64,000 bases of DNA from Gimibacter soli (GTDB lineage: Bacteria > Pseudomonadota > Alphaproteobacteria > Sphingomonadales > Kordiimonadaceae): NCBI RefSeq assembly GCF_028463845.1, contig NZ_CP116805.1, positions 2,108,001 to 2,172,000 of the forward strand. The letters are read 5' to 3'. This document shows, piece by piece, positions 36,047-47,662 of the stretch; position 1 is the first letter of the stretch; the number at the start of each line of letters is the position of its first letter. The translations under genes were made by a program, and so were the position numbers. Below the pieces are notes generated by a model that searched no databases, had not been told where the DNA came from, and was given only the letters and a program-made list of their open reading frames with translations.

Positions 36047-36202
36047 ATGGGCGTTTTAGTCGCATCGCAGCCAAATGGCCATAGAGATATGCATCTATTG
36101 TTGCCCATAATATAAATTATGCGTTATTTATACGAGGAACCCCCGGCTAGTCCCAATGATGTAGAATTACGGTGAGCCCGGGTGTGCGGTGACTTAGAAA
36201 TT

Positions 36203-36215
36203 GTCACTGAGTGAC
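36203..36215. repeat. 13-bp palindrome in the core/accessory junction
   Basis: GTCACT-G-AGTGAC is a perfect dyad inside the 282-bp gap 36,047-36,328. More GTGAC copies stand at about 36,190 and 36,280. Otherwise this gap shows only AT-rich sequence; it is downstream of the SIR2 operon and upstream of the YaiI-like gene. Confidence 0.4.
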
Positions 36216-36328
36216 TTTGGTTGTGTCATCTTGCGTGAGCGAGCAATTTTCGCAAAGTTCGAACGCATTTCGTAAGTGACGAATCTTTCCAAAAATTGCG
36301 AGTGGGTCCTTGTCATGAATTTTGCGGC

Positions 36329-37114
36329 CTATCGAAATTGGCTGTCTGGAACCCCTGGGGCTCTGCGGATATACCTAATGCCCTCTCGCTCGAAGACAAT
36401 GTCTCGTATAGGGTCCAACCGATTGTCCCAAAATTCCGGGTTTAATTGATCGCGCATCATAGCCGTCATCGCATCACCGTAACGATCCATAAGCTTTTCC
36501 CTAAAAGCCACTTCATGCGTCCATTTGTTTGATCCAATTTCTTGCCGAGCTAAACAATCTGCCTGAAAATGGACAACGATGCCTAAACCGCCCTGATGGC
36601 AAGAAGGCGTAATACAAAACGCGTAATCTATCTGAGAGCTATCGCGTCGAACGCGATCAATAATAAGTTTGCAAAAATTCTCGTGTGTCAGATAGCTGTA
36701 GCCATTGTTAACAACGATGAGAATCCCAGCATGACGTACTGCATTCAAATCTGCTCTGGTGTCTTTTATTTGCGCTGAAGCCTTTTTGAGCGGACCTTGA
36801 AGCGGCTTTGATATGATCTCTTCGATAGCTTCACGGAATGAAACGTCTACGCTATCAAGGTCAATATCGATCTCCGTCTTACCATCACTGCTGCGATCGA
36901 AAATTTTTGCTACTTTGTCTTGACGTCCTGGCTCCAGAATGCCCTCTTTCTCGATTAGTTTAAGCTCAAGAACGGCGTTGGGCCCAATATAGTCGGCGTT
37001 CTTTCTTCCTGCCTTTAGATGCATGAGCTCTTCGTATCGGTGCCACCCTAGATCCTTAATAATGCCGTCGATGAAACTTTCCGTCACCCTTGGCACAGGA
37101 AATAATGGTTCCAT
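36329..37114 (-). CDS. Unknown protein with PD-(D/E)XK-like motif, last gene of SIR2-HerA operon
   Basis: The 261-residue soluble protein has no close family I can name. Residues 41-52 read D-x8-ELK, set in a predicted strand-turn-strand (NADYIGPNAVLELKLI) as in PD-(D/E)XK nucleases. A later Cys/His pair (ITPSCHQGG) may be structural. GGGGAGG precedes the ATG at 37114. It is the fourth gene behind the SIR2, HerA and KTSC genes and probably co-transcribed. A nuclease role in the defence operon is inference; it could also be an unrelated cargo protein. Confidence 0.65.
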   Translation of the reverse strand: MEPLFPVPRVTESFIDGIIKDLGWHRYEELMHLKAGRKNADYIGPNAVLELKLIEKEGILEPGRQDKVAKIFDRSSDGKTEIDIDLDSVDVSFREAIEEIISKPLQGPLKKASAQIKDTRADLNAVRHAGILIVVNNGYSYLTHENFCKLIIDRVRRDSSQIDYAFCITPSCHQGGLGIVVHFQADCLARQEIGSNKWTHEVAFREKLMDRYGDAMTAMMRDQLNPEFWDNRLDPIRDIVFEREGIRYIRRAPGVPDSQFR

Positions 37115-37177
37115 GAGACCTCCCCTGCTTCTCTCAAGCAATATCAAACGGCTGCCTTAAGGTGGCTACTGGTATCT

Positions 37178-37396
37178 TCAAACTCTACTGTATCGATAAT
37201 AACCCTTCACAGATTGGTGCATAAAGGTTCCTTTGGAACCGGCATTTTTTAGGCCGTCCCAGATGTTACTTGGGACATCATAATATTGATATACCGCGCC
37301 AGACAGGAATGTTACCTCAAGTGTTGAGGTAACATCGTCATATCGCAGACTGGCGATATTTGACGAACTGAAGTCTGAATGAATTTCCCAGGCCAT
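37178..37396 (-). CDS. KTSC-domain small protein
   Basis: The 72-residue protein is a single KTSC domain. It has SSNIASLRYDDVTSTLEVTFLSGAVYQYYDVP followed by a helix and the closing GTFMHQSVKGYYRYSRV. KTSC domains occur alone or fused to other enzymes and are of unknown function. Here it lies 4 bp after the HerA-like gene and 63 bp before the next gene, in one operon. AGAGGAA precedes the start. Confidence 0.82.
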   Translation of the reverse strand: MAWEIHSDFSSSNIASLRYDDVTSTLEVTFLSGAVYQYYDVPSNIWDGLKNAGSKGTFMHQSVKGYYRYSRV

Positions 37397-37400
37397 AATA

Positions 37401-39320
37401 TTATTCCTCTCTGATTTTGGGACCTACGTTGGGATTCTGTCTTCTCCAAGCAGTTGTCAGCGATTGATAGCTCTTAGAGTCACGTCCCAGACGAATACCC
37501 CATCCGCCAGGAACCATAGAAATATCAGGGGGCAAATCGTCACAAACGATGGGGTCTAAACTGTCAGGTCTTCTATCGATAGGTGGCGCGATAATATTGG
37601 CACGCATAGGTAATCCAACCGCCTCCCCGACGATAATGGCTTCACCCGTCCGCAATATCGAAAGCATATTGGTTAGGCCATCGAGGTTATCGGAGAGCGT
37701 CCCTGTGACGTGTGATCTATCTGCTGCATTATTTAGGCGAAGCGCAAAAAACGTCCCGCACTGGGAGAGTATCGTGGGATTAATTTCAGACGGACGTTGA
37801 CTTACAACCATCGCGCCAATCCCATACTTCCTGCCTTCCTTTACAATTCGTTGGACGATTGAGGATGCAAGACCATTGTTGCTTTCATTGAGATAGTTGT
37901 GAGCCTCTTCCATGACGAGTAAAAGCGGTCGCTCCCGTCCGCCTTGTGAGAGATTACGTGCCCAGAACAGCCCGTCGTAGAATATCCGCAGAAGAATCCC
38001 AATGACGTCATTGGTTATGGAATGTGGCACCCCTGAAAGATCGAGAATGGTTATTGGTTTTTCTGAACCAATCCAATCCTCCATTAGGTCTGCGAGGTCG
38101 GCATCTGTTTTGCCACTTGAATCCACTGCCCATGGGCCTGGTTTGAGAAAAAAGTCAAATCTCGGGATCCGTAATTTTGCACCAAGGTTCTCAAGCTGAC
38201 CTCGAATGTTCAGAGGATTTGGGAGATAGTTGATTTTCTCAGGATCCCCGGTGAGGTTTTTAACCTTTTTGAAGACTGGTGCAATGCCGGCCATGGCGTC
38301 ACCCCGTAAAGCCGCACCCTCGGGATTGGTTTCGAAGGCCCAGTTCTCTGGCTCAGGCTTTTTATTGGTATCGGAATAATAGGTGCCAAACTCAGCGCAA
38401 TACAGCTCGTGCCAAAGCTCGTGCAAACTGAAAGGTACAGGTGTGTCGACATTCAAGGAATCCGGTGAGGCGCCTTCCTTGGGGTAAGCTTTTAATGCTT
38501 CTGATTTGTAATGAAGAATTTTTTCCAGAATTATGTTTCTTGCCTTCGATTCTGGCGAAATGTCCCCAAATGTAACTTTCAAGAGTTCGTCAAAGCTCAT
38601 AGCCCAATACGGCAGGTATAAGGGCTTTTCGTTGGCGTTCCTAGGATCAGGGGATATCCTATAAATGTTCGCACGATCACCTAATGCCTTGCCGTATTCA
38701 CCATGCAGGTCAATAACGACAATGCGGGCGGAGGGAAATCGCTCAACGTTGGAGAGCGCTGAGAGCAAAGACGCCACTGTAGTGGATTTACCTGAGCCGG
38801 TGGTTCCGACAACAGCAGAATGGCGTGTAACGAGTTTGTTTATATCAACCAATGCATCAATTGACTCTGCGCCAGCGATGTGGCCGACCTTGACAAGGTG
38901 ATTTTGTTTACCTTTTTGGCCATAAATCCCTGCGAGATCATTTTCGGATACTAAATGTACCTCGTCTTCGATGGTTGGGTATTGCGCGATCCCACGGTGA
39001 AAACTCCCGCCTTGATCTCCTTCTCCAACGAGCTGAATTCTGAGCCATCGATGCCCAAACGGTTCTTTTTCGAGCAATGCCTCGGGAACCGCGCCGGCGC
39101 CAACCTGCGTAACGATGCCAAACAGGCTTGTATACCCAATCGGAATTTTTACGAAACTACCAGGTTGACCTATGCGGTATGCCTGTCCGTCAACAAACGT
39201 CAGCCCAGAGAATTGGAAGTTGTTTAAGCGAACACTGACCGATGCCCCACTGACATCTTGCACAGTTCCAATCAATGTGGCCGAAGCGGAAGTTCTATTC
39301 TTCATGTTCGCCCCGCACAT
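37401..39320 (-). CDS. HerA-like hexameric ATPase (DUF87), SIR2 partner
   Basis: The 639-residue protein is a HerA/FtsK-superfamily ATPase. It has an N-terminal HAS-barrel (about 10-125), Walker A at 172-179 (GTTGSGKS), VIDLHGEYG at 203-211, Walker B LLLVMEEAH at 466-474 and sensor/arginine region VVSQRPSEINPTILSQ at 506-520. It starts inside the end of the SIR2 gene (26-bp overlap, or 11 bp if Met6 is used), so translation is coupled. In known SIR2-HerA systems the two proteins assemble into a large antiphage complex. Confidence 0.9.
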   Translation of the reverse strand: MCGANMKNRTSASATLIGTVQDVSGASVSVRLNNFQFSGLTFVDGQAYRIGQPGSFVKIPIGYTSLFGIVTQVGAGAVPEALLEKEPFGHRWLRIQLVGEGDQGGSFHRGIAQYPTIEDEVHLVSENDLAGIYGQKGKQNHLVKVGHIAGAESIDALVDINKLVTRHSAVVGTTGSGKSTTVASLLSALSNVERFPSARIVVIDLHGEYGKALGDRANIYRISPDPRNANEKPLYLPYWAMSFDELLKVTFGDISPESKARNIILEKILHYKSEALKAYPKEGASPDSLNVDTPVPFSLHELWHELYCAEFGTYYSDTNKKPEPENWAFETNPEGAALRGDAMAGIAPVFKKVKNLTGDPEKINYLPNPLNIRGQLENLGAKLRIPRFDFFLKPGPWAVDSSGKTDADLADLMEDWIGSEKPITILDLSGVPHSITNDVIGILLRIFYDGLFWARNLSQGGRERPLLLVMEEAHNYLNESNNGLASSIVQRIVKEGRKYGIGAMVVSQRPSEINPTILSQCGTFFALRLNNAADRSHVTGTLSDNLDGLTNMLSILRTGEAIIVGEAVGLPMRANIIAPPIDRRPDSLDPIVCDDLPPDISMVPGGWGIRLGRDSKSYQSLTTAWRRQNPNVGPKIREE

Positions 39321-40521
39321 TGCCGCTTAAACTCTTTAGAAGATTTGCAAATTGTAGGAAGTCGCCGAGACGCAATTCGCACTCTTGTCGGTCCTCATCA
39401 GCATTGGTATCTCTCGGTGGAATTAATATGCTCTCCATATCTGGAAGCTGTGTTCCCTCTTCAAAATACCACCCACCCAGCTTGCGTCCAATTATGGCTC
39501 CATCAAACGCAACTAAGCTGAGGTTGGGCGATTTGAGCGCGCAATCTCTAGCATTGGCGTATTTTGCATCGTCAATCTTCCCGTAGATAAAAGCGTAGAC
39601 CATCCCAGATGAATTGCTGGCTAAGCTTCGGCACAGCACATCATTTATATGTTCGTCTGAAAAGGAGTAACCTGCCAAGAACAACACAGAACCCGGTTTG
39701 AGCAGAAATTCTTTCAGACGATCTAGCATCGCCAAGTACGGCATTTTCCTGCTCTGGTCATATTTTAGGTGCGATGGATAGATTAAGTAGCGGCTATCAC
39801 TATCAACCTTGTCACTACGCACAACGTTTCCGTTGGAATCTAGGCGCCAATTGATAGAGCCATGCACCTTCCATAGACGCGTCCATCGTGCAGGAAGCAG
39901 TGATTCATTCTCGACAGCGCCAAGGTCAAAAAACGCAGCTTTTGTCCCTACAAATCCATCAAAATAGGGAGCCAACGATTCTTCAAGAGCCTGTTCAAGG
40001 AGCAGATCATAATTGGTTGTGAAGATGTGAACCGGAAAAACCCGTTCAAGTCCTCTCAGCCAGAGAGCCAGATTGTGGTAAGGTGTGTTCGCAGTCGGCA
40101 GGGCCTTATCAACGAGTTGAGAAATATTTTGAGAAATATGCCTGTCTAGCTCTTCGAGCTCGGCGTAATTAAAGCCTCTCACCTGCCCCTTGCCGGCGAC
40201 CGCGCGCAGAGCTCGTACAGCCGTCAAAATATCCTCAATATTGGGGTCCCGCTTACCATCCTCTTTTAAAAGTGTGACAAGTCTATCCCAGTGGCTTGGC
40301 GCTTGCGTTTTGGGTGCTGTGAGCCGCTCTCCAATACATGCTGTAAGTCCCGCAACGTCTGGAATAATTGGACCTGCATCATTTCCCTTTGGGTCCGTAA
40401 TACGTACAGAAAGTGGACACCCTGCTCCGATAAAAAAACCTAACGACTTCTTATTCTGAGAAAGTGCCTGACGAATATAAGTCAATTGCCGAACCACGTT
40501 GTGGGTCACCGTCTCCGCCAT
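39295..40521 (-). CDS. SIR2-domain NADase-type defence effector
   Basis: The 408-residue protein is a SIR2-superfamily member. Visible are FFIGAG at 29-34, TTNYD at 168-172, the candidate catalytic His220 in WKVHGSINW, and GYSFSDEHI at 284-292, the pattern seen in prokaryotic defence SIR2 proteins rather than protein deacetylases. No zinc ribbon is visible. Such proteins degrade NAD+ to abort infection. It is the first gene of a four-gene operon with HerA. GGGGGA precedes the ATG at 40521. Its base composition is AT-richer than the core genes. Confidence 0.88.
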   Translation of the reverse strand: MAETVTHNVVRQLTYIRQALSQNKKSLGFFIGAGCPLSVRITDPKGNDAGPIIPDVAGLTACIGERLTAPKTQAPSHWDRLVTLLKEDGKRDPNIEDILTAVRALRAVAGKGQVRGFNYAELEELDRHISQNISQLVDKALPTANTPYHNLALWLRGLERVFPVHIFTTNYDLLLEQALEESLAPYFDGFVGTKAAFFDLGAVENESLLPARWTRLWKVHGSINWRLDSNGNVVRSDKVDSDSRYLIYPSHLKYDQSRKMPYLAMLDRLKEFLLKPGSVLFLAGYSFSDEHINDVLCRSLASNSSGMVYAFIYGKIDDAKYANARDCALKSPNLSLVAFDGAIIGRKLGGWYFEEGTQLPDMESILIPPRDTNADEDRQECELRLGDFLQFANLLKSLSGNVRGEHEE

Positions 40522-40849
40522 CGCTTTCCCCCTGACGATTCATAAATTTATCACGACTCAAAATTGCATATAACTCTACCATTCAATTGGTGCTGTTGCC
40601 GCCAGATTTTACCATCGATAACTTTCACTTATCGTTGCTAATCGCCCCGGTTTTGCCCGGATTTCCCTGAAATCGACGCCGCAAAGGGCCGGATTCTGCG
40701 CCCTGCCCGCGCCGCCCCCGTCCCCTGAAAAAGCGCGCGCCCTGCCCGGTTTCGCCCCGCGCCCGGCCCGCCCATCCTGCCCGCTTCCCCGTGGCTTGGG
40801 GGCGCCGCCCCGCCATGCTATGCTGCAGCCCTTGGCCCTGGAGGATGCG
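40522..40849. other. Intergenic region between SIR2 operon and tyrosine recombinase
   Basis: This 328-bp gap holds the unseen promoters of two divergent genes. Its left third is AT-rich and resembles the defence operon; from about 40,640 it turns abruptly GC-rich with many C/G runs, like the tni block. The dyad at 40616-40634 lies at the switch. No convincing sigma-70 promoter was found. Confidence 0.6.
40616..40634. repeat. Dyad upstream of tyrosine recombinase 1 (candidate recombination core)
   Basis: CGATAA-CTTTCAC-TTATCG has 6-bp arms and a 7-bp centre. It is preceded by ATTTTACCAT and lies 215 bp before the recombinase start. The dyad at 49782-49800 has the same layout. Use as a strand-exchange core is inference. 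Confidence 0.5.
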
Positions 40850-41923
40850 ATGCCGCTATCCCGCGTGCGCCGCGGCGCCGCCGCGACCGGTTTTGCCGCC
40901 ACCGACGCCGCCGCCCAGCTGATCGGCTGGCTGCCGGTGCGCGATGCCCTCAAACGCGACCTCGAAGCGGTCTATGACCGCGCCGCGGCGCTCGCCCGCA
41001 TGGCGCGCGCCGACCATACCCGCCGCGCCTACAAAACCGCCTGGGGCCAATATGAGGCCTGGTGCCACGGCGTCGGCATCGCACCGCTGGCCGGCGATCC
41101 CGGCACGGTGGCGCTCTATCTCGCCACCCTGTCCCTCAAGGCCCGCCCGGCCACCCTGCAGGCCCGCCTCGCCGCGATCAGCGTCGCCCACCGCCTCGCC
41201 GGGGTGCCGCTCGATACCCGCCATGAAGCGCTGCGGCTGGTCCTCAAGGGCGCGCGGCGCGAACGCGGCGTCGCCCCGGGGCGCCAGGCCAAAGCCTTCA
41301 GCGCCGAGGACCTGGTGATGCTCGGCCCGCTCTATGGGGACAGCCCGCGCGAGCAGCGCGACAAGGCGCTGCTGCTGGTCGGTTTTGCGGCCGCACTCCG
41401 GCGCGCCGAACTCGCCGCCCTTGCCCGCGACGATGTGGCGATCGACCACCACGGCGCCCTGCAGCTCACCGTGCGCCGCGCCAAGGGCGACCCCGAGGGC
41501 GCGGGGGTACGCCTCACCGTCAGCCCGCATCCGGTCGCTGCGGCCTGCCCGGTCGCGGCGCTTGTCGCCTGGCTCTCGGTGCGCGGCGACGCCCCGGGGC
41601 CGCTCTTCTGGCGCGCTGACCGCGGCGGCGGGGTCCGCGCCCGGGCGATCGGTGCCCAGGCGGTCAATGGCGTGGTCAAGGACGCGGCGCGCCGCCTCGG
41701 CTATGACCCGGTGCTTTATAGCGGCCACAGCCTGCGCGCCGGCCTCGCCAGCGCTGCCGCCGACGCCGGCTGCGACCTCAAGGCGATCATGACCCAGACC
41801 CGCCTGAAGAGCCCGGCCCAGGCCGCGACCTATATGCGCGGCCGCCACGCCGGGCGCCTGACCGAGACGGTCTTTGCCGCAGCGGTACAGCACCAGGATC
41901 AGGCCCCCGGCCAGCCGCAATAG
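40850..41923 (+). CDS. Tyrosine recombinase of the tni block
   Basis: The 357-residue protein has a SAM-like N-terminal domain (about 50-140) and a tyrosine-recombinase catalytic domain with Arg184 (ALRRAEL), a lysine near 212, His293-x-x-Arg296 (SGHSLRAG) and Tyr328 (ATYMRG). GGAGG precedes the ATG at 40850. Its 3' end overlaps tniQ convergently by 25 bp. It resembles the second recombinase at 49886 in several blocks (CPVAA, GPLF, HSLR). It may be a resolvase for the tni element. Codon use is extremely GC-rich, suggesting transfer. Confidence 0.85.
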   Translation: MPLSRVRRGAAATGFAATDAAAQLIGWLPVRDALKRDLEAVYDRAAALARMARADHTRRAYKTAWGQYEAWCHGVGIAPLAGDPGTVALYLATLSLKARPATLQARLAAISVAHRLAGVPLDTRHEALRLVLKGARRERGVAPGRQAKAFSAEDLVMLGPLYGDSPREQRDKALLLVGFAAALRRAELAALARDDVAIDHHGALQLTVRRAKGDPEGAGVRLTVSPHPVAAACPVAALVAWLSVRGDAPGPLFWRADRGGGVRARAIGAQAVNGVVKDAARRLGYDPVLYSGHSLRAGLASAAADAGCDLKAIMTQTRLKSPAQAATYMRGRHAGRLTETVFAAAVQHQDQAPGQPQ

Positions 41924-42876
41924 GGCCAGACCATGGCACGGGCGGCGGGCCGGATCAGGCGGGCTTCGCTCTCCGGCCAGGCGCGAGCGCGGGCGACGAT
42001 CCAGTCCCAGGCCTCGTCGGTGACATGCTCCCGGCTCGGGACATAACCATCCTTGAGAATCTCGCCGGCCCAGAAAAAGGCATTATAGAGGACCCAGCGC
42101 CGGTACCCGGCGGGGGACAGTCCGAAATAGTCGATGGTCTCGACCTTGGTCGTGAAACAGGAGGGACACCGTCCCGGCAAAGCCTCGAAGAGCCCCGACC
42201 AGTCGCTGCGCCAGGTGCGGACCAGCAGCGGGCGCAACATGCTGGTCGCCGCGGACAGGCGCGAGAAGGAACAGAAATTGCGGTGCAGGAGGGTGACAAC
42301 GTCGCCGAGCGCGCCGCTTTCGAGCGACCGGATCGTCGCCGCGGCGGCAGGTCCCTGCCCCAGCGCCTGCAGGAACAGGAAGCGTTGCCCGAAGTCGAGG
42401 ATCTCACCAAGTTCATGAGGGCGGATCGCCAGATAGTTTTTAAAGGCCGGGGGGCGCTTCGGCGGACGGGTGTGCCAGGGCTCGACGCAATCGACGAGCG
42501 GCACGAGGTGGCGGTCGCAGAGCAGCGCCAGCCCTCGATGCCAGGCACCGCGCCGCCAGGGCTCCTCACCGCGCGCCAGGTCGTCGTGCCAGCAGACGGG
42601 GCAGATCTGGCACCGGTTGCCGCGGCTCAGCAAGCGCGCCCGAGGCTCGACCATGGCCGCAAGGCGCGCCAGCGGCAGGCCAGCCAGCGCCGCGAAGGCG
42701 CCGAGCCAGGGCGGCGCCTCGCGGTCGAGATCATGGTCGCCAAGCGACGGCGTGTCGAGCAGGCCGAAGTCATAGAGGAGCCTGCCCGGCGGCTGTTCAT
42801 AGCCTGCGGCGAAGCGGTCGAGCCAGCCGCCGAGCATTTCTCCCGGCTGGGGCCTGGGCACATAGCCGAACCGCAT
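41899..42876 (-). CDS. tniQ: TniQ-family transposition protein
   Basis: The 325-residue protein begins with a TniQ domain and carries the zinc-binding pattern C89/C92/C95 (CQICPVC) with C120-x2-H123 (LLCDRHL). TniQ/TnsD proteins recognise target DNA for Tn7-like and Tn5053/Tn402-like transposition. The start at 42876 is one base past the tniB stop; an in-frame extension upstream is only the tniB gene in another frame. The order tniA-tniB-tniQ is canonical. Confidence 0.85.
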   Translation of the reverse strand: MRFGYVPRPQPGEMLGGWLDRFAAGYEQPPGRLLYDFGLLDTPSLGDHDLDREAPPWLGAFAALAGLPLARLAAMVEPRARLLSRGNRCQICPVCWHDDLARGEEPWRRGAWHRGLALLCDRHLVPLVDCVEPWHTRPPKRPPAFKNYLAIRPHELGEILDFGQRFLFLQALGQGPAAAATIRSLESGALGDVVTLLHRNFCSFSRLSAATSMLRPLLVRTWRSDWSGLFEALPGRCPSCFTTKVETIDYFGLSPAGYRRWVLYNAFFWAGEILKDGYVPSREHVTDEAWDWIVARARAWPESEARLIRPAARAMVWPYCGWPGA

Positions 42877-42877
42877 C

Positions 42878-43750
42878 TCAGCGCTCGTCGTCCGGATCGG
42901 CCTGCGTGCCGAGAATGGCGTCGCGGCCGAGATGTTCCGTGCGGTTGCGGATCGCCGCGGTGGCGAGGTCGCGTAGATAATCAATCACCCCGCCGGTCGA
43001 GGCCTTGCCCTGATCGAGGATCTCCTGCAGCAGCACTTTCTCGCGGGCGAGCGCCGGGTCGACGCCCTCGCGCAGCGGCAGGGTGGCCAGGATGGTAGCG
43101 ACAAACTGGCGAAAGGAATCGTCCAGCTTCCATTGACGGAGCTCGAATATGTCGAAGCGATGATAGAGCTGCTCCTCGCCCTGGATCATGGGCAGCAGCG
43201 TTTTCTGGCTGCCAAAGGCGACGATCGAGGCCTGGAGGCCCTCGCTGAGCCGCTGGAGATTGCGGACGATCGTGGCAAAGTCGGCCTTAGTGGGGGTATT
43301 GATCAGGCCCTGGAACTCGTTGATCAGGATCACCTTCGCCCCCATGTTGCCGAGACGGTTCAAGCAGAAATGGAAGAGGATTTCGTCGCGCATGCCGGTA
43401 TGGCCAAGGCCGGCGGCGACGAGCAGGCCGCGGAGGAATCCGTCGGCGGTCGGGGCGTTGGGCATTTCATAGACCAGCGCCGGGCGCTGGTCGTGCGGGC
43501 CGCTGATCTGTCCGACCCCCCGATTTATTTCGCGTCCGACGTGATCAAGCAGGCGCGATTTTCCCATATTGGGATCGGCGGCGACCAGGATCCAGCGGGG
43601 TCGGCTGCGGCGGGGCATCAAGGCGCAGTCGAGGATGGCCTTGCAGATCGGCATGATCATCGGCAGGTCGATCCAATGGTCGCGCCACAAGGCGTCGATC
43701 CGCACCTCGGCCGGGCGCTTCAGAAAATCGTCATCAGAGGTCATCGTCAT
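42878..43750 (-). CDS. tniB: TniB-family AAA ATPase
   Basis: The 290-residue protein is a TniB/TnsC-like ATPase that regulates the transposase. Walker A is AADPNMGKS at 57-65. The Walker B strand reads ILINEFQ (141-147), with Asn in place of the usual Asp, which could lower ATP hydrolysis. It overlaps the tniA 3' end by 17 bp, so the genes are coupled. TniB marks target DNA with TniQ and recruits TniA. Confidence 0.87.
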   Translation of the reverse strand: MTMTSDDDFLKRPAEVRIDALWRDHWIDLPMIMPICKAILDCALMPRRSRPRWILVAADPNMGKSRLLDHVGREINRGVGQISGPHDQRPALVYEMPNAPTADGFLRGLLVAAGLGHTGMRDEILFHFCLNRLGNMGAKVILINEFQGLINTPTKADFATIVRNLQRLSEGLQASIVAFGSQKTLLPMIQGEEQLYHRFDIFELRQWKLDDSFRQFVATILATLPLREGVDPALAREKVLLQEILDQGKASTGGVIDYLRDLATAAIRNRTEHLGRDAILGTQADPDDER

Positions 43751-45371
43751 GCCTCCAACTCAGCAGCGGCAGGGGCTGCCGGGTCAATCGGGGTGGGGTG
43801 CGCTTGGGGGCCGGTTTTGACCGGGCGATCTGTCGCTGGCGCTGCCGGGCGTTCGTTCGGACCTGGTCGTCAAGCTCATAGAGCGCCCCCGTCAGCTCCT
43901 CCTCAAGATCCTTGAGTTTCTGGTCATGATAGTGTGCTTTGGTGCGCTGCCGATCCCTTTGCGTGGCGTCAAGATGGGCAAAGGTCGGCGTTTCCCATGG
44001 CGCCAGCGGTACCTCGAAATAGGTCTGGGAAAAGTCGAGGGAAACATAGACCCGGGTCATGTCGGTACGGTTGAAGCCGGCGCGCACGCGCTGGCCAACA
44101 TGGGGCGCCAGACGGGGGGACTGGTAGGTGCGGCGGTGCACCGTGATCCCCTGTCCGCGGACCAGCGGCGACTTGTGTTCGAGGAGCGCGTGGCGCACCG
44201 CATCCGGGTCGGGGCGAACCAGATGCGGGGGAATATTGGCCTCGAGCTCCTTGAATTTCTGGTAGGGGCTGCAGCCCAGGGCCCGGTGCGGTGTGACATG
44301 GTAGCGCAGGATGTTGAGCACCAGCCAAGTCTCGAACTCCTCGAATGTATAGGCCGCTTCTTTCATCGGGTCATAGCCTTTCTTGGCGACGACATTGCTG
44401 AAGCTGGTCCCCTTGATCATATGCAACTCTCCCATCATACGGCCGATCAGGCGTTCGATATGACCGCCATGATGGGGCTCGCCGACCGGCCGGTAATGGG
44501 GGTGGACCCCCAACCGCACGAGCGCTTCAGGGAGCTCGCCAAATTTGAGGTCGGTGCCATTGTCGGTCCCAAGATTCTGGATCAGGAAGGATGTCGGCCA
44601 GGGGTCATCGATGCCGCGCTCGTGGAAGGGCGCCAGAGAGATACCGGCGCGCTCGATGATCGACCGTTTGGGGCAGCAACACATGAGGATGGTGAGAACA
44701 TTGGTGCGGCCGGTCGGTGGCTTGATATTGATGCCATAGCCGAGGACCATGCGGGTGGCGATATCGACGACCAGGGTCAGCCACAGGCGCAGGATACCGA
44801 GCCCGCAGCCGCGCATATCGACGAAGGCATCGGCCAATGTATGGTCCATCTGGGCATATTCCCCCGGAATGTCGGTGCACAGTTTGCCGGGGAGCCATTT
44901 GAAGGTGTGCGGATCCGCTTTGATCTTGCTGGTTTTTGCCAAGGTTTTTTTGGAGACGGCTTGGGCCCTGCGCCGGAATGTTCTCTGGTCGATGCCGCGT
45001 GTTTTCAAGCGGCGACAGAAGCGGTTGACCAGCTTGGCCATGTCGCGGATCGAACGCTCTTCCCGGAACGGCAGATAGCGCTCGTGGAGCACCCGTTGCA
45101 GGGCATATTCCGTCAGCTCCGGCAGGCGAGCGGCAGGAGCCGTTTTGGGGCGCCGGTAACGGGCCGGCAGATGGGTGGTGAGGAATGGCGCCTTGAGATG
45201 CGCCCGCACATAGCGATAGACCGTTCGCGGCCGCACCCCGAGTTGCTCGGCCGCCTGCCGGGCCTGGCGTTGGGACACCGGGCCCAGCGCGATCGCCGCA
45301 ATGATCTTATGCCGCCGTTTCGCTTCCGCCAGAACCGCTGCGGGAATATTGGTTTCGTCAGGATAGGTCAC
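43734..45371 (-). CDS. tniA: TniA DDE transposase
   Basis: The 545-residue protein is a Mu/TniA-type transposase with N-terminal helix-turn-helix region (about 30-60), an RNase-H-like core and C-terminal Mu-type beta-barrel. The catalytic triad is Asp176 (AQMDHT), Asp270 (GTDNGTD) and Glu306 (GHIERL), a D-x35-E spacing. I chose GTG at 45371 because AGGAGG lies 6 bp upstream; the reading frame continues 47 codons further without similarity. It catalyses DNA strand transfer for the tni element. Confidence 0.9.
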   Translation of the reverse strand: MTYPDETNIPAAVLAEAKRRHKIIAAIALGPVSQRQARQAAEQLGVRPRTVYRYVRAHLKAPFLTTHLPARYRRPKTAPAARLPELTEYALQRVLHERYLPFREERSIRDMAKLVNRFCRRLKTRGIDQRTFRRRAQAVSKKTLAKTSKIKADPHTFKWLPGKLCTDIPGEYAQMDHTLADAFVDMRGCGLGILRLWLTLVVDIATRMVLGYGINIKPPTGRTNVLTILMCCCPKRSIIERAGISLAPFHERGIDDPWPTSFLIQNLGTDNGTDLKFGELPEALVRLGVHPHYRPVGEPHHGGHIERLIGRMMGELHMIKGTSFSNVVAKKGYDPMKEAAYTFEEFETWLVLNILRYHVTPHRALGCSPYQKFKELEANIPPHLVRPDPDAVRHALLEHKSPLVRGQGITVHRRTYQSPRLAPHVGQRVRAGFNRTDMTRVYVSLDFSQTYFEVPLAPWETPTFAHLDATQRDRQRTKAHYHDQKLKDLEEELTGALYELDDQVRTNARQRQRQIARSKPAPKRTPPRLTRQPLPLLSWRHDDDL

Positions 45372-45524
45372 CTGAAGCCTCCTCGGGTTGCGCCGATCGC
45401 ACCGGCGGGCAGCGCCGCAGCCCGGGACGGACCCTTGACGGCCGTGGCAGAAAAGGAAGACGGCGCCCTGCCCCTGGTTGCGCGCTGGCGCTTGCCGCCA
45501 GGCCAAGGTCAAACGTCCTCTTGC

Positions 45525-46312: not shown

Positions 46313-47662
46313 TCACTCGCCCGATGGGTTGCCCTTCTTTTTTAGCTCCGCGAACTTGCCCGCCATGGTCGGGTTGCCTTTGGTCAGCTTTTTGATTGTC
46401 ACATCCTGTGCTTTGTCGTTGGCGAGGCGCAGGTTGCGGTCGGTACCAAGCAGGGCTTCCTTGGTTTTCTGAAGATGGTCGATGGACTTGTCGATTTCGG
46501 CAATCGCCGTCTGAAAACGTCGCGACGCGAGGTCAAAGTTCTTGCCGAAGGCTGTTTTGAAAGCCTCCAGTTCGGCTTCAAAATTGGCGACATCGATATT
46601 CTGCGCTTTCACCAATGCAAGCTCGGATTTGTATTTGAGCGAATTCATGGCAGCGTTGCGCAGCAGCGTGATGATCGGGATGAAGAACTGCGGGCGCACC
46701 ACATACATTTTCGGATAGCGGTGGAACATATCGACGATCCCGGTGTTGTAAAGTTCGCTCTCGGGCTCGAGCAACGAGACCAGGACCGCATATTCGCAGC
46801 CTTTTTCGGTACGGTCCTTGTCGAGTTCCTTCAGGAAATCCTCGTTCCTGCTTTTTGTGGCAGTGCGATCACTCTCATTCTTCATCTCGAACATGATCGA
46901 GACGATTTCGGTGCCGGCGTCATCCAAGTCCCGGAAAATATAGTCGCCCTTGCTGCCGCTCCGGGCGTCATTATCCTTCTCAAAATAGGCCTTCGGGAAA
47001 GCCGTCGCCCGGATGCGATTGAACTCGGTCTCACAATGCTGCTCGAGGGTTTCGCCCACCATCTTGGTTGAAAGGCGTGCCTTCATGTCCTTCAGGCGCT
47101 CGATCGCATCGTCGCGGTCCTTGATCTGGGTCTCATACCGTTCTTTGAGGGCCTTTTCGGAGAGTTGTTTCTCGAGCTCTGCCTGCTTGAGTCCGTTCTG
47201 CAGGTCGTCGCGCTCTCTCTCGATCGCGCTGATCGCCTTGGTCACCGCGAGTTCCTGCGCAACATTGAAAGCGTCCAGCCTGGCCTGCAGGTCCTGGATG
47301 GCGGCGTCCTTGGTGTTGACCACCTTCTGCAGCTCGCTTACCAGCGTCTCGCGCTCCTTGTCGGCGGATCCCAAAGCCTCAGTGACGGCGAGTTGACGGG
47401 CAATCTCCCCGGCTTCCAGTTTGGCCTTCAGGGCTTGAATTTCAGCGTCTTTGGAGGACGAAGACTGTTGGTATTCCTTCTCTGCTTTGGCCGTCGCGAG
47501 TTCAACGGCGGTCCGCTTGTCGCGCTCTGCGAGATCGAGGCGCTCGTGCAGCTGCTTTTCGAATTCGTGGTCACGGACTTGCTTCAGAATCTCTGCATAC
47601 CCGGCGCCATCGATTTTGAAAGCCTTGCCACAGTGGGGACACACAATTTCCTGCATAGCCAT
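46313..47662 (-). CDS. DUF2130 coiled-coil protein with nuclease-like motif
   Basis: The 449-residue protein begins with a zinc-knuckle-like CPHC (8-11), continues as a long coiled coil (about 30-200) and ends with the DUF2130 domain. That domain contains D240 in GSKGDYIFR and E259-x-K261 in IMFEMKNE, a PD-(D/E)XK-like pattern. Function of the family is not established; a nuclease role, possibly in defence, is plausible. It lies downstream of an XRE regulator and of the CACTAACAT repeats. An AAAGG precedes the start. Confidence 0.85.

What the first reader, a model, noticed from the sequence alone, without database searches (positions are those of the whole stretch)
36329..37114. Orphan protein with a possible nuclease core
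The strand-like NADYIGPNAVLELKLI holds a D...ExK spacing of PD-(D/E)XK enzymes, but the rest of the protein is unlike families I can name. If it is a nuclease, the defence operon would have both an NAD-depleting and a DNA- or RNA-cleaving arm.
Basis: partly seen in the sequence, partly recalled or inferred. Interest (0 to 1): 0.6.

Follow-up and report, generated by a model that had tools for sequence, protein, structure and literature searches.

The report
Likely nuclease beside SIR2-HerA defence genes
The unnamed protein next to a known anti-phage gene set belongs to a small, undescribed protein family whose fully conserved residues include those expected of a DNA-cutting enzyme, so it is probably a nuclease carried as an optional extra with that defence system.

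Summary
The ORF is real, on the minus strand: 261 aa, ATG at 37114 behind a good ribosome-binding site, 63 nt after the KTSC gene of a SIR2-HerA-KTSC set. The D...ExK spacing alone is chance level: a loose form occurs in 31 of 54 window ORFs. The protein is not an orphan, though. Sixteen family members were aligned, the window's included; the others are 18-29% identical to it. In 16 of 16, D41, E50, L51, K52, A112, Q115, N136 and W198 are invariant. AlphaFold models give the PD-(D/E)XK order, with D41 facing E50 on one hairpin. Fold searches are weak: BsmI ranks first but nearly ties with unrelated folds. I call a nuclease likely (about 0.8); activity and substrate are untested. The link to SIR2-HerA is looser. 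All 23 HerA loci examined have SIR2-HerA-KTSC, but only the window has this gene next. Three others carry an unrelated D...ExK protein in the same slot and one a SLATT protein. GC content marks the four window genes as one block. A nuclease arm added to an NADase system is plausible, not shown.

The parts
36329..37114 (-). The ORF of the finding, 261 aa: predicted PD-(D/E)XK nuclease of an undescribed family; D41, E50, K52 (active-site candidates), Q115, N136
37178..37396 (-). KTSC domain protein, 72 aa, 63 nt upstream of the ORF's ATG
   Evidence: (Pfam KTSC E 5.9e-23)
37401..39320 (-). HerA-type ATPase/translocase, 639 aa
   Evidence: PADLOC HerA PDLC04105 E 1.5e-155
39295..40521 (-). SIR2-domain protein, 408 aa, predicted NADase
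   Evidence: PADLOC SIR2 PDLC04094 E 3.1e-130
36058..40700 (.). Low-GC block (mostly 44-51% GC in 400-base windows) holding the four genes; backbone shared with a same-genus genome ends near 36057

Best explanation
The ORF encodes a metal-dependent nuclease with a PD-(D/E)XK-type core: helix 1 carrying E12, a beta hairpin carrying D41 opposite E50 with K52 on the same face, a long helix carrying Q115, then a strand ending in N136. It belongs to an unnamed family that mostly travels alone, in prophage ends and variable regions. Here it was acquired with, and is probably transcribed after, SIR2-HerA-KTSC. It most likely acts as an additional anti-phage effector that cuts nucleic acid, alongside NAD+ depletion by SIR2-HerA. 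Shown: the family, the invariant residues, the predicted secondary-structure order, the neighbourhood. Inferred: the catalytic fold, nuclease activity, substrate, co-transcription, role in defence.
For: D41, E50, L51, K52, A112, Q115, N136 and W198 are identical in 16 of 16 members; E12 in 15 of 16. Separately built profiles of the two subfamilies align over 207 columns with 98.1% probability and the ELK motifs in register. The model of the window protein (mean pLDDT 63, pTM 0.68) has H12-21, E42-44, E47-54, H91-122, E129-136, H144-158, E164-175. The model of relative L010 (pLDDT 79.4, pTM 0.80) has the same order with D49, E60, K62, Q129. In both, the hairpin register puts D opposite E (my inference from strand limits; I had no coordinates). 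Four BsmI restriction-enzyme entries take the top four rows for the L010 model and ranks 1, 3, 6 and 7 for the window model: Z 6.2-6.9, rmsd 3.6-4.1, 130-151 residues aligned. GC of the four genes is 43-49%, against 59% for the chromosomal DUF188 gene and 63-75% for the recombinase and Tni genes.
Against: Z is below 8, and Rossmann dehydrogenases (up to 6.3) or acetyl-CoA carboxylase domains (up to 6.6) are practically tied with BsmI. Foldseek gives no PDB or viral match at E <= 0.001. No profile library names any family member a nuclease. The window model is of moderate confidence, with residues 172-185, 189-198 and 227-261 poorly modelled. The gene is not conserved with SIR2-HerA-KTSC: it follows KTSC in 1 of 23 loci.
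Confidence: 0.72

Rival explanations
1. It is a PD-(D/E)XK nuclease but unrelated in function to SIR2-HerA-KTSC: a stand-alone defence or superinfection gene that landed next to the operon.
For: None of the 15 other family members scanned lies beside SIR2 or HerA; the one KTSC-like hit lies about 6 kb away in L024. Relatives sit singly, for example beside a tyrosine integrase at a viral contig end and near the end of Acinetobacter phage AbIPP1. G781 carries both a relative and a SIR2-HerA-KTSC set on one contig, about 378 kb apart.
Against: Same strand, 63 nt gap, no terminator-like site on the minus strand between KTSC and the ORF, shared low GC. The slot after KTSC holds an unrelated D...ExK protein in 3 of the 22 other loci.
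Confidence: 0.45
2. It is a true fourth subunit: HerA or KTSC delivers DNA to it, giving one complex with NADase and DNase arms.
For: A paper passage reports HerA-KTSC systems with an endoDNase in place of the sirtuin (PMC9503650, passages read). Another summarises E. coli SIR2-HerA as having NADase, helicase and nuclease activities (PMC11559045, passages read). Three loci carry a different predicted nuclease 2-5 nt after KTSC.
Against: 17 of the 23 loci show no co-directional ORF of 100 aa or more within 100 nt after KTSC (an 18th, L052, has only a transposase-like ORF 87 nt on), so the core set does without one. The two fourth-gene families are not detectably related (hhalign probability 0.1%). 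This family normally lives alone.
Confidence: 0.25
3. It is not a nuclease: the conserved D/E/K/Q/N set serves another alpha/beta enzyme or a binding fold.
For: Structural hits to Rossmann dehydrogenases and acetyl-CoA carboxylase are nearly as good as to BsmI; no library names a nuclease.
Against: No GxGxx[GA] motif in the window protein. The hairpin-first strand order and the D/ExK/Q pattern fit PD-(D/E)XK (recalled definition) better than Rossmann, and the invariant set contains the catalytic residues expected.
Confidence: 0.18

Closest known systems
PD-(D/E)XK nuclease superfamily (restriction-endonuclease-like fold)
   Same: Conserved D, ExK, a helix-1 acidic residue and a glutamine in the long helix; predicted helix, strands, helix, strand order
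   Different: No sequence match to any named family; D to E spacing of only 9-11 residues; some 36-41 residues between the ExK strand and the long helix
SIR2-HerA anti-phage system (Nezha)
   Same: SIR2 and HerA neighbours score as PADLOC SIR2 and HerA
   Different: Here with KTSC and one further gene; the further gene is not part of the described two-gene system
HerA-KTSC-endoDNase systems mentioned in PMC9503650 (passage)
   Same: HerA, KTSC and a predicted endonuclease together
   Different: There the endoDNase is said to replace the sirtuin; here the sirtuin is present too
phrog_20483 (phage family, unknown function)
   Same: Matches 3 of 5 family members scanned, best E 9.8e-6
   Different: Does not match the window protein itself
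BsmI restriction endonuclease, residues 466-676
   Same: Best-ranked solved structure for both models, Z 6.2-6.9
   Different: Not significant; no sequence match. That this BsmI region is a nuclease domain is recalled, not checked

Membership tests
PD-(D/E)XK nuclease superfamily | Conserved D and (D/E)xK | tested here: met
   D41, E50, K52 in 16 of 16 members
PD-(D/E)XK nuclease superfamily | Core order helix, strands with D and ExK on adjacent strands, helix, strand | tested here: met
   Predicted secondary structure of two models; predictions, not a solved structure
PD-(D/E)XK nuclease superfamily | D, E and K cluster in space | tested here: inconclusive
PD-(D/E)XK nuclease superfamily | Clear fold match to a solved member | tested here: inconclusive
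   BsmI first, Z 6.2-6.9, nearly tied with unrelated folds
PD-(D/E)XK nuclease superfamily | Metal-dependent phosphodiester cleavage | not testable with these tools
   bench assay needed
SIR2-HerA (Nezha) defence system | Adjacent SIR2 and HerA genes | tested here: met
SIR2-HerA (Nezha) defence system | The ORF is a conserved component | tested here: not met
   follows KTSC in 1 of 23 loci examined; family profile finds nothing in nine HerA stretches
phrog_20483 | Window protein matches the profile | tested here: not met
   no hit at E <= 1, though relatives match

The most novel reading that the evidence does not exclude
The slot after KTSC in SIR2-HerA-KTSC systems is an exchangeable effector position, filled by at least two unrelated PD-(D/E)XK-like nuclease families or by a SLATT membrane effector. 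Some of these systems would then couple NAD+ depletion to nucleic-acid cleavage, which contradicts the published idea that sirtuin and endonuclease exclude each other in HerA systems.
Probability: 0.3. Interest if true: 0.65.

Novelty: new variant of a known kind. Interest (0 to 1): 0.45.

Why it matters
If true, it adds an undescribed nuclease family to the anti-phage repertoire and shows that SIR2-HerA-KTSC sets can carry an optional nuclease. That bears directly on a proposal in print (PMC9503650, passage read): because sirtuin and endoDNase are mutually exclusive in HerA systems, the sirtuin may act on DNA. Loci with both would weaken that argument and give a direct test: does each arm protect alone?

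Tried and rejected
Sequence searches with the single protein found no relatives in genome contigs, viral contigs or, apart from its own genome, in 385 genomes of the class; a plasmid and a phage hit opened the family. Profile and phmmer searches of solved structures gave nothing significant. Viral scans with A2, with the L005 protein and with A7 found nothing. Fold searches were not decisive: Foldseek no hit at E <= 0.001. In VIA-align, entries I recall as PD-(D/E)XK folds other than BsmI appear low in the window-protein list (SfsA 4dap Z 4.4, Hef 1j24 Z 3.9), and I recognise none among the other rows for L010.

A common origin of the window family and the 345-aa fourth-gene family was tested and not found at this sensitivity. 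Transposon ends: no convincing inverted repeat joins the 36051-36340 region to the rest of the window, so I do not claim that the block is cargo of the Tni element. Empty-site comparison with the same-genus genome G744 fixed only the left limit of shared backbone.

In the count I left out ORFs under 100 aa as possible fourth genes (a 77-aa ORF 14 nt after KTSC in L031, a 63-aa ORF 132 nt after in L049) and ORFs more than 70 nt away (a 207-aa transposase-like ORF at 87 nt in L052). I opened 14 of 31 plasmid records with a HerA match, all 7 non-own genome matches and the single viral one. L029/L030, L032/L054 and L052/L053 look like near duplicates.

The BsmI active-site position could not be checked: paper searches did not list its structure paper. 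PMC11418745 is not held.

Full report
What is there. The reading frame at 36329-37114 is on the minus strand: 261 aa from the ATG at 37114. On the plus strand the same stretch has 11 stops. The ATG follows a GGGGAGG stretch, and the gene starts 63 nt after the stop of a 72-aa KTSC-domain gene. In transcription order the minus strand reads SIR2 (39295-40521), HerA (37401-39320), KTSC (37178-37396), then this ORF. SIR2 and HerA score strongly against PADLOC's SIR2 and HerA models. No terminator-like site was found on the minus strand between KTSC and the ORF.

Is the motif more than chance. By itself it is not: D-x(6,30)-[DE]-x-K is in 31 of 54 non-overlapping window ORFs, a stricter form in 5 of 54, and a form fitted to this protein in 1 of 54. 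The protein has no Pfam, PADLOC or NCBIfam match.

The family. tblastn found a relative on a Ciceribacter thiooxidans megaplasmid (28% identity, E 9e-11) and a weak one in Acinetobacter phage AbIPP1 (E 0.3). A profile of the three found G570 and G600 in 398 genomes of the phylum. Later profiles found viral contigs L007 and L018, eight loci in genome contigs and G781. The weak phage hit is borne out: its protein is 43% identical over its length to the L007 protein. Sixteen distinct members were aligned. D41, E50, L51, K52, A112, Q115, N136 and W198 are identical in 16 of 16; E12, G23, A40, G138, I162 and D163 in 15 of 16. Profiles of the window's subfamily (A7, with the Ciceribacter and G781 proteins) and of the other subfamily (A5) align over 207 columns at 98.1% probability with the NAD-F/Y and ELK motifs in register. 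Family members are rare: with the single sequence 1 of 385 class genomes, the window's own; with profiles 3 of 398 phylum genomes and 3 of 118 close relatives, each count including the window's own.

Structure. The AlphaFold2 model of the window protein has pLDDT 63 and pTM 0.68; that of relative L010 has 79.4 and 0.80. Both give helix 1, a beta hairpin with D just before its first strand and ExK in its second, helices, a long helix with the invariant Q, a strand ending at the invariant N, helix, strand. That is the order expected of a PD-(D/E)XK core (recalled). From the strand limits (42-44 with 47-54; 50-52 with 57-63) D41 falls opposite E50, and D49 opposite E60; the K two residues on faces the same side. 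This is inference, as I could not measure distances. VIA-align ranks BsmI residues 466-676 first for both models (Z 6.2-6.9), but dehydrogenases and acetyl-CoA carboxylase come within 1 Z unit, and Foldseek finds nothing at E <= 0.001. The fold evidence is therefore consistent, not conclusive.

Is it part of the defence operon. I examined 23 HerA loci including the window: 14 plasmid records of 31 with a match, 7 genome loci, 1 viral contig and the window. All 23 have SIR2, HerA and KTSC. A co-directional gene of at least 100 aa within 70 nt of KTSC occurs in 5 of 23: this ORF in the window; a different 343-345 aa protein in Paracoccus zhejiangensis (L028), G042 (L034) and G752 (L044, same taxonomic family as the window); and a SLATT-domain protein in Pseudoalteromonas (L051). 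The 345-aa proteins share a TGDIV...IECK pattern and a following Q, again D...ExK-like, but are not detectably related to the window family. The window family profile hits none of the nine HerA stretches searched with it (L026-L034). Conversely, sixteen stretches round other family members were searched for SIR2, HerA, KTSC and the 345-aa family; they cover 15 members, as L007 and L017 are the same contig. The only hit is a KTSC-like ORF in L024, about 6 kb from the family member. So the gene is an optional neighbour, not a conserved part.

Composition links the four window genes: GC 47.8 (SIR2), 48.8 (HerA), 42.9 (KTSC) and 46.1% (the ORF), third-position GC 41-48%, against 59.0% for the DUF188 gene and 62.6-74.8% for the tyrosine recombinase and TniQ/TniB/transposase genes. 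The low-GC block runs from about 36.05 to 40.7 kb, and 86% DNA identity with same-genus genome G744 stops at about 36057. This suggests joint acquisition; low GC is common in defence genes (recalled), so it is not proof.

Mechanism. Most likely a metal-dependent nuclease that adds a cutting activity to, or simply travels with, an NAD+-depleting system. Whether HerA or KTSC feeds it DNA is open. [quoted passage not shown] PMC11559045 describes SIR2-HerA (Nezha) as an NAD+-depleting complex and notes reported nuclease activity of the E. coli version. PMC7824862 mentions KTSC only as an RNA-binding domain in jumbo phages. In three searches, from their listings and the passages read, I saw no paper describing SIR2, HerA, KTSC and a nuclease as one gene set; the library lacks most subscription journals.

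Verdict. I rate it a new variant of a known kind, interest 0.45.

Noticed in passing
L028:7129-8166, L034:5380-6417, L044:4538-5569: An undescribed 343-345 aa family with a D...ExK-like TGDIV...IECK pattern sits directly after KTSC in three SIR2-HerA-KTSC loci; no significant Pfam match.
   Followed up: partly
L051:5256-5810: A SLATT-domain (two-transmembrane effector) gene follows KTSC in a Pseudoalteromonas SIR2-HerA-KTSC locus.
   Followed up: partly
window 46313-47662: A DUF2130 gene lies beyond the Tni genes; DUF2130 or DUF2130-like genes also follow SIR2-HerA-KTSC in two Bradyrhizobium plasmids (L029, L030) and G567 (L046).
   Followed up: no
window 40796-45512: Tyrosine recombinase, TniQ, TniB and Mu-type transposase genes with 63-75% GC lie next to the low-GC defence block; no matching ends were found.
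   Followed up: partly
L007:190-969 and L003:2665-3423: Family members at a viral contig end beside a tyrosine integrase and near the end of Acinetobacter phage AbIPP1, positions typical of phage-carried accessory genes.
   Followed up: partly
L002:7977-9323, L022:8645-10000: The closest relatives are about 450 aa, with a C-terminal extension that the window protein lacks.
   Followed up: no
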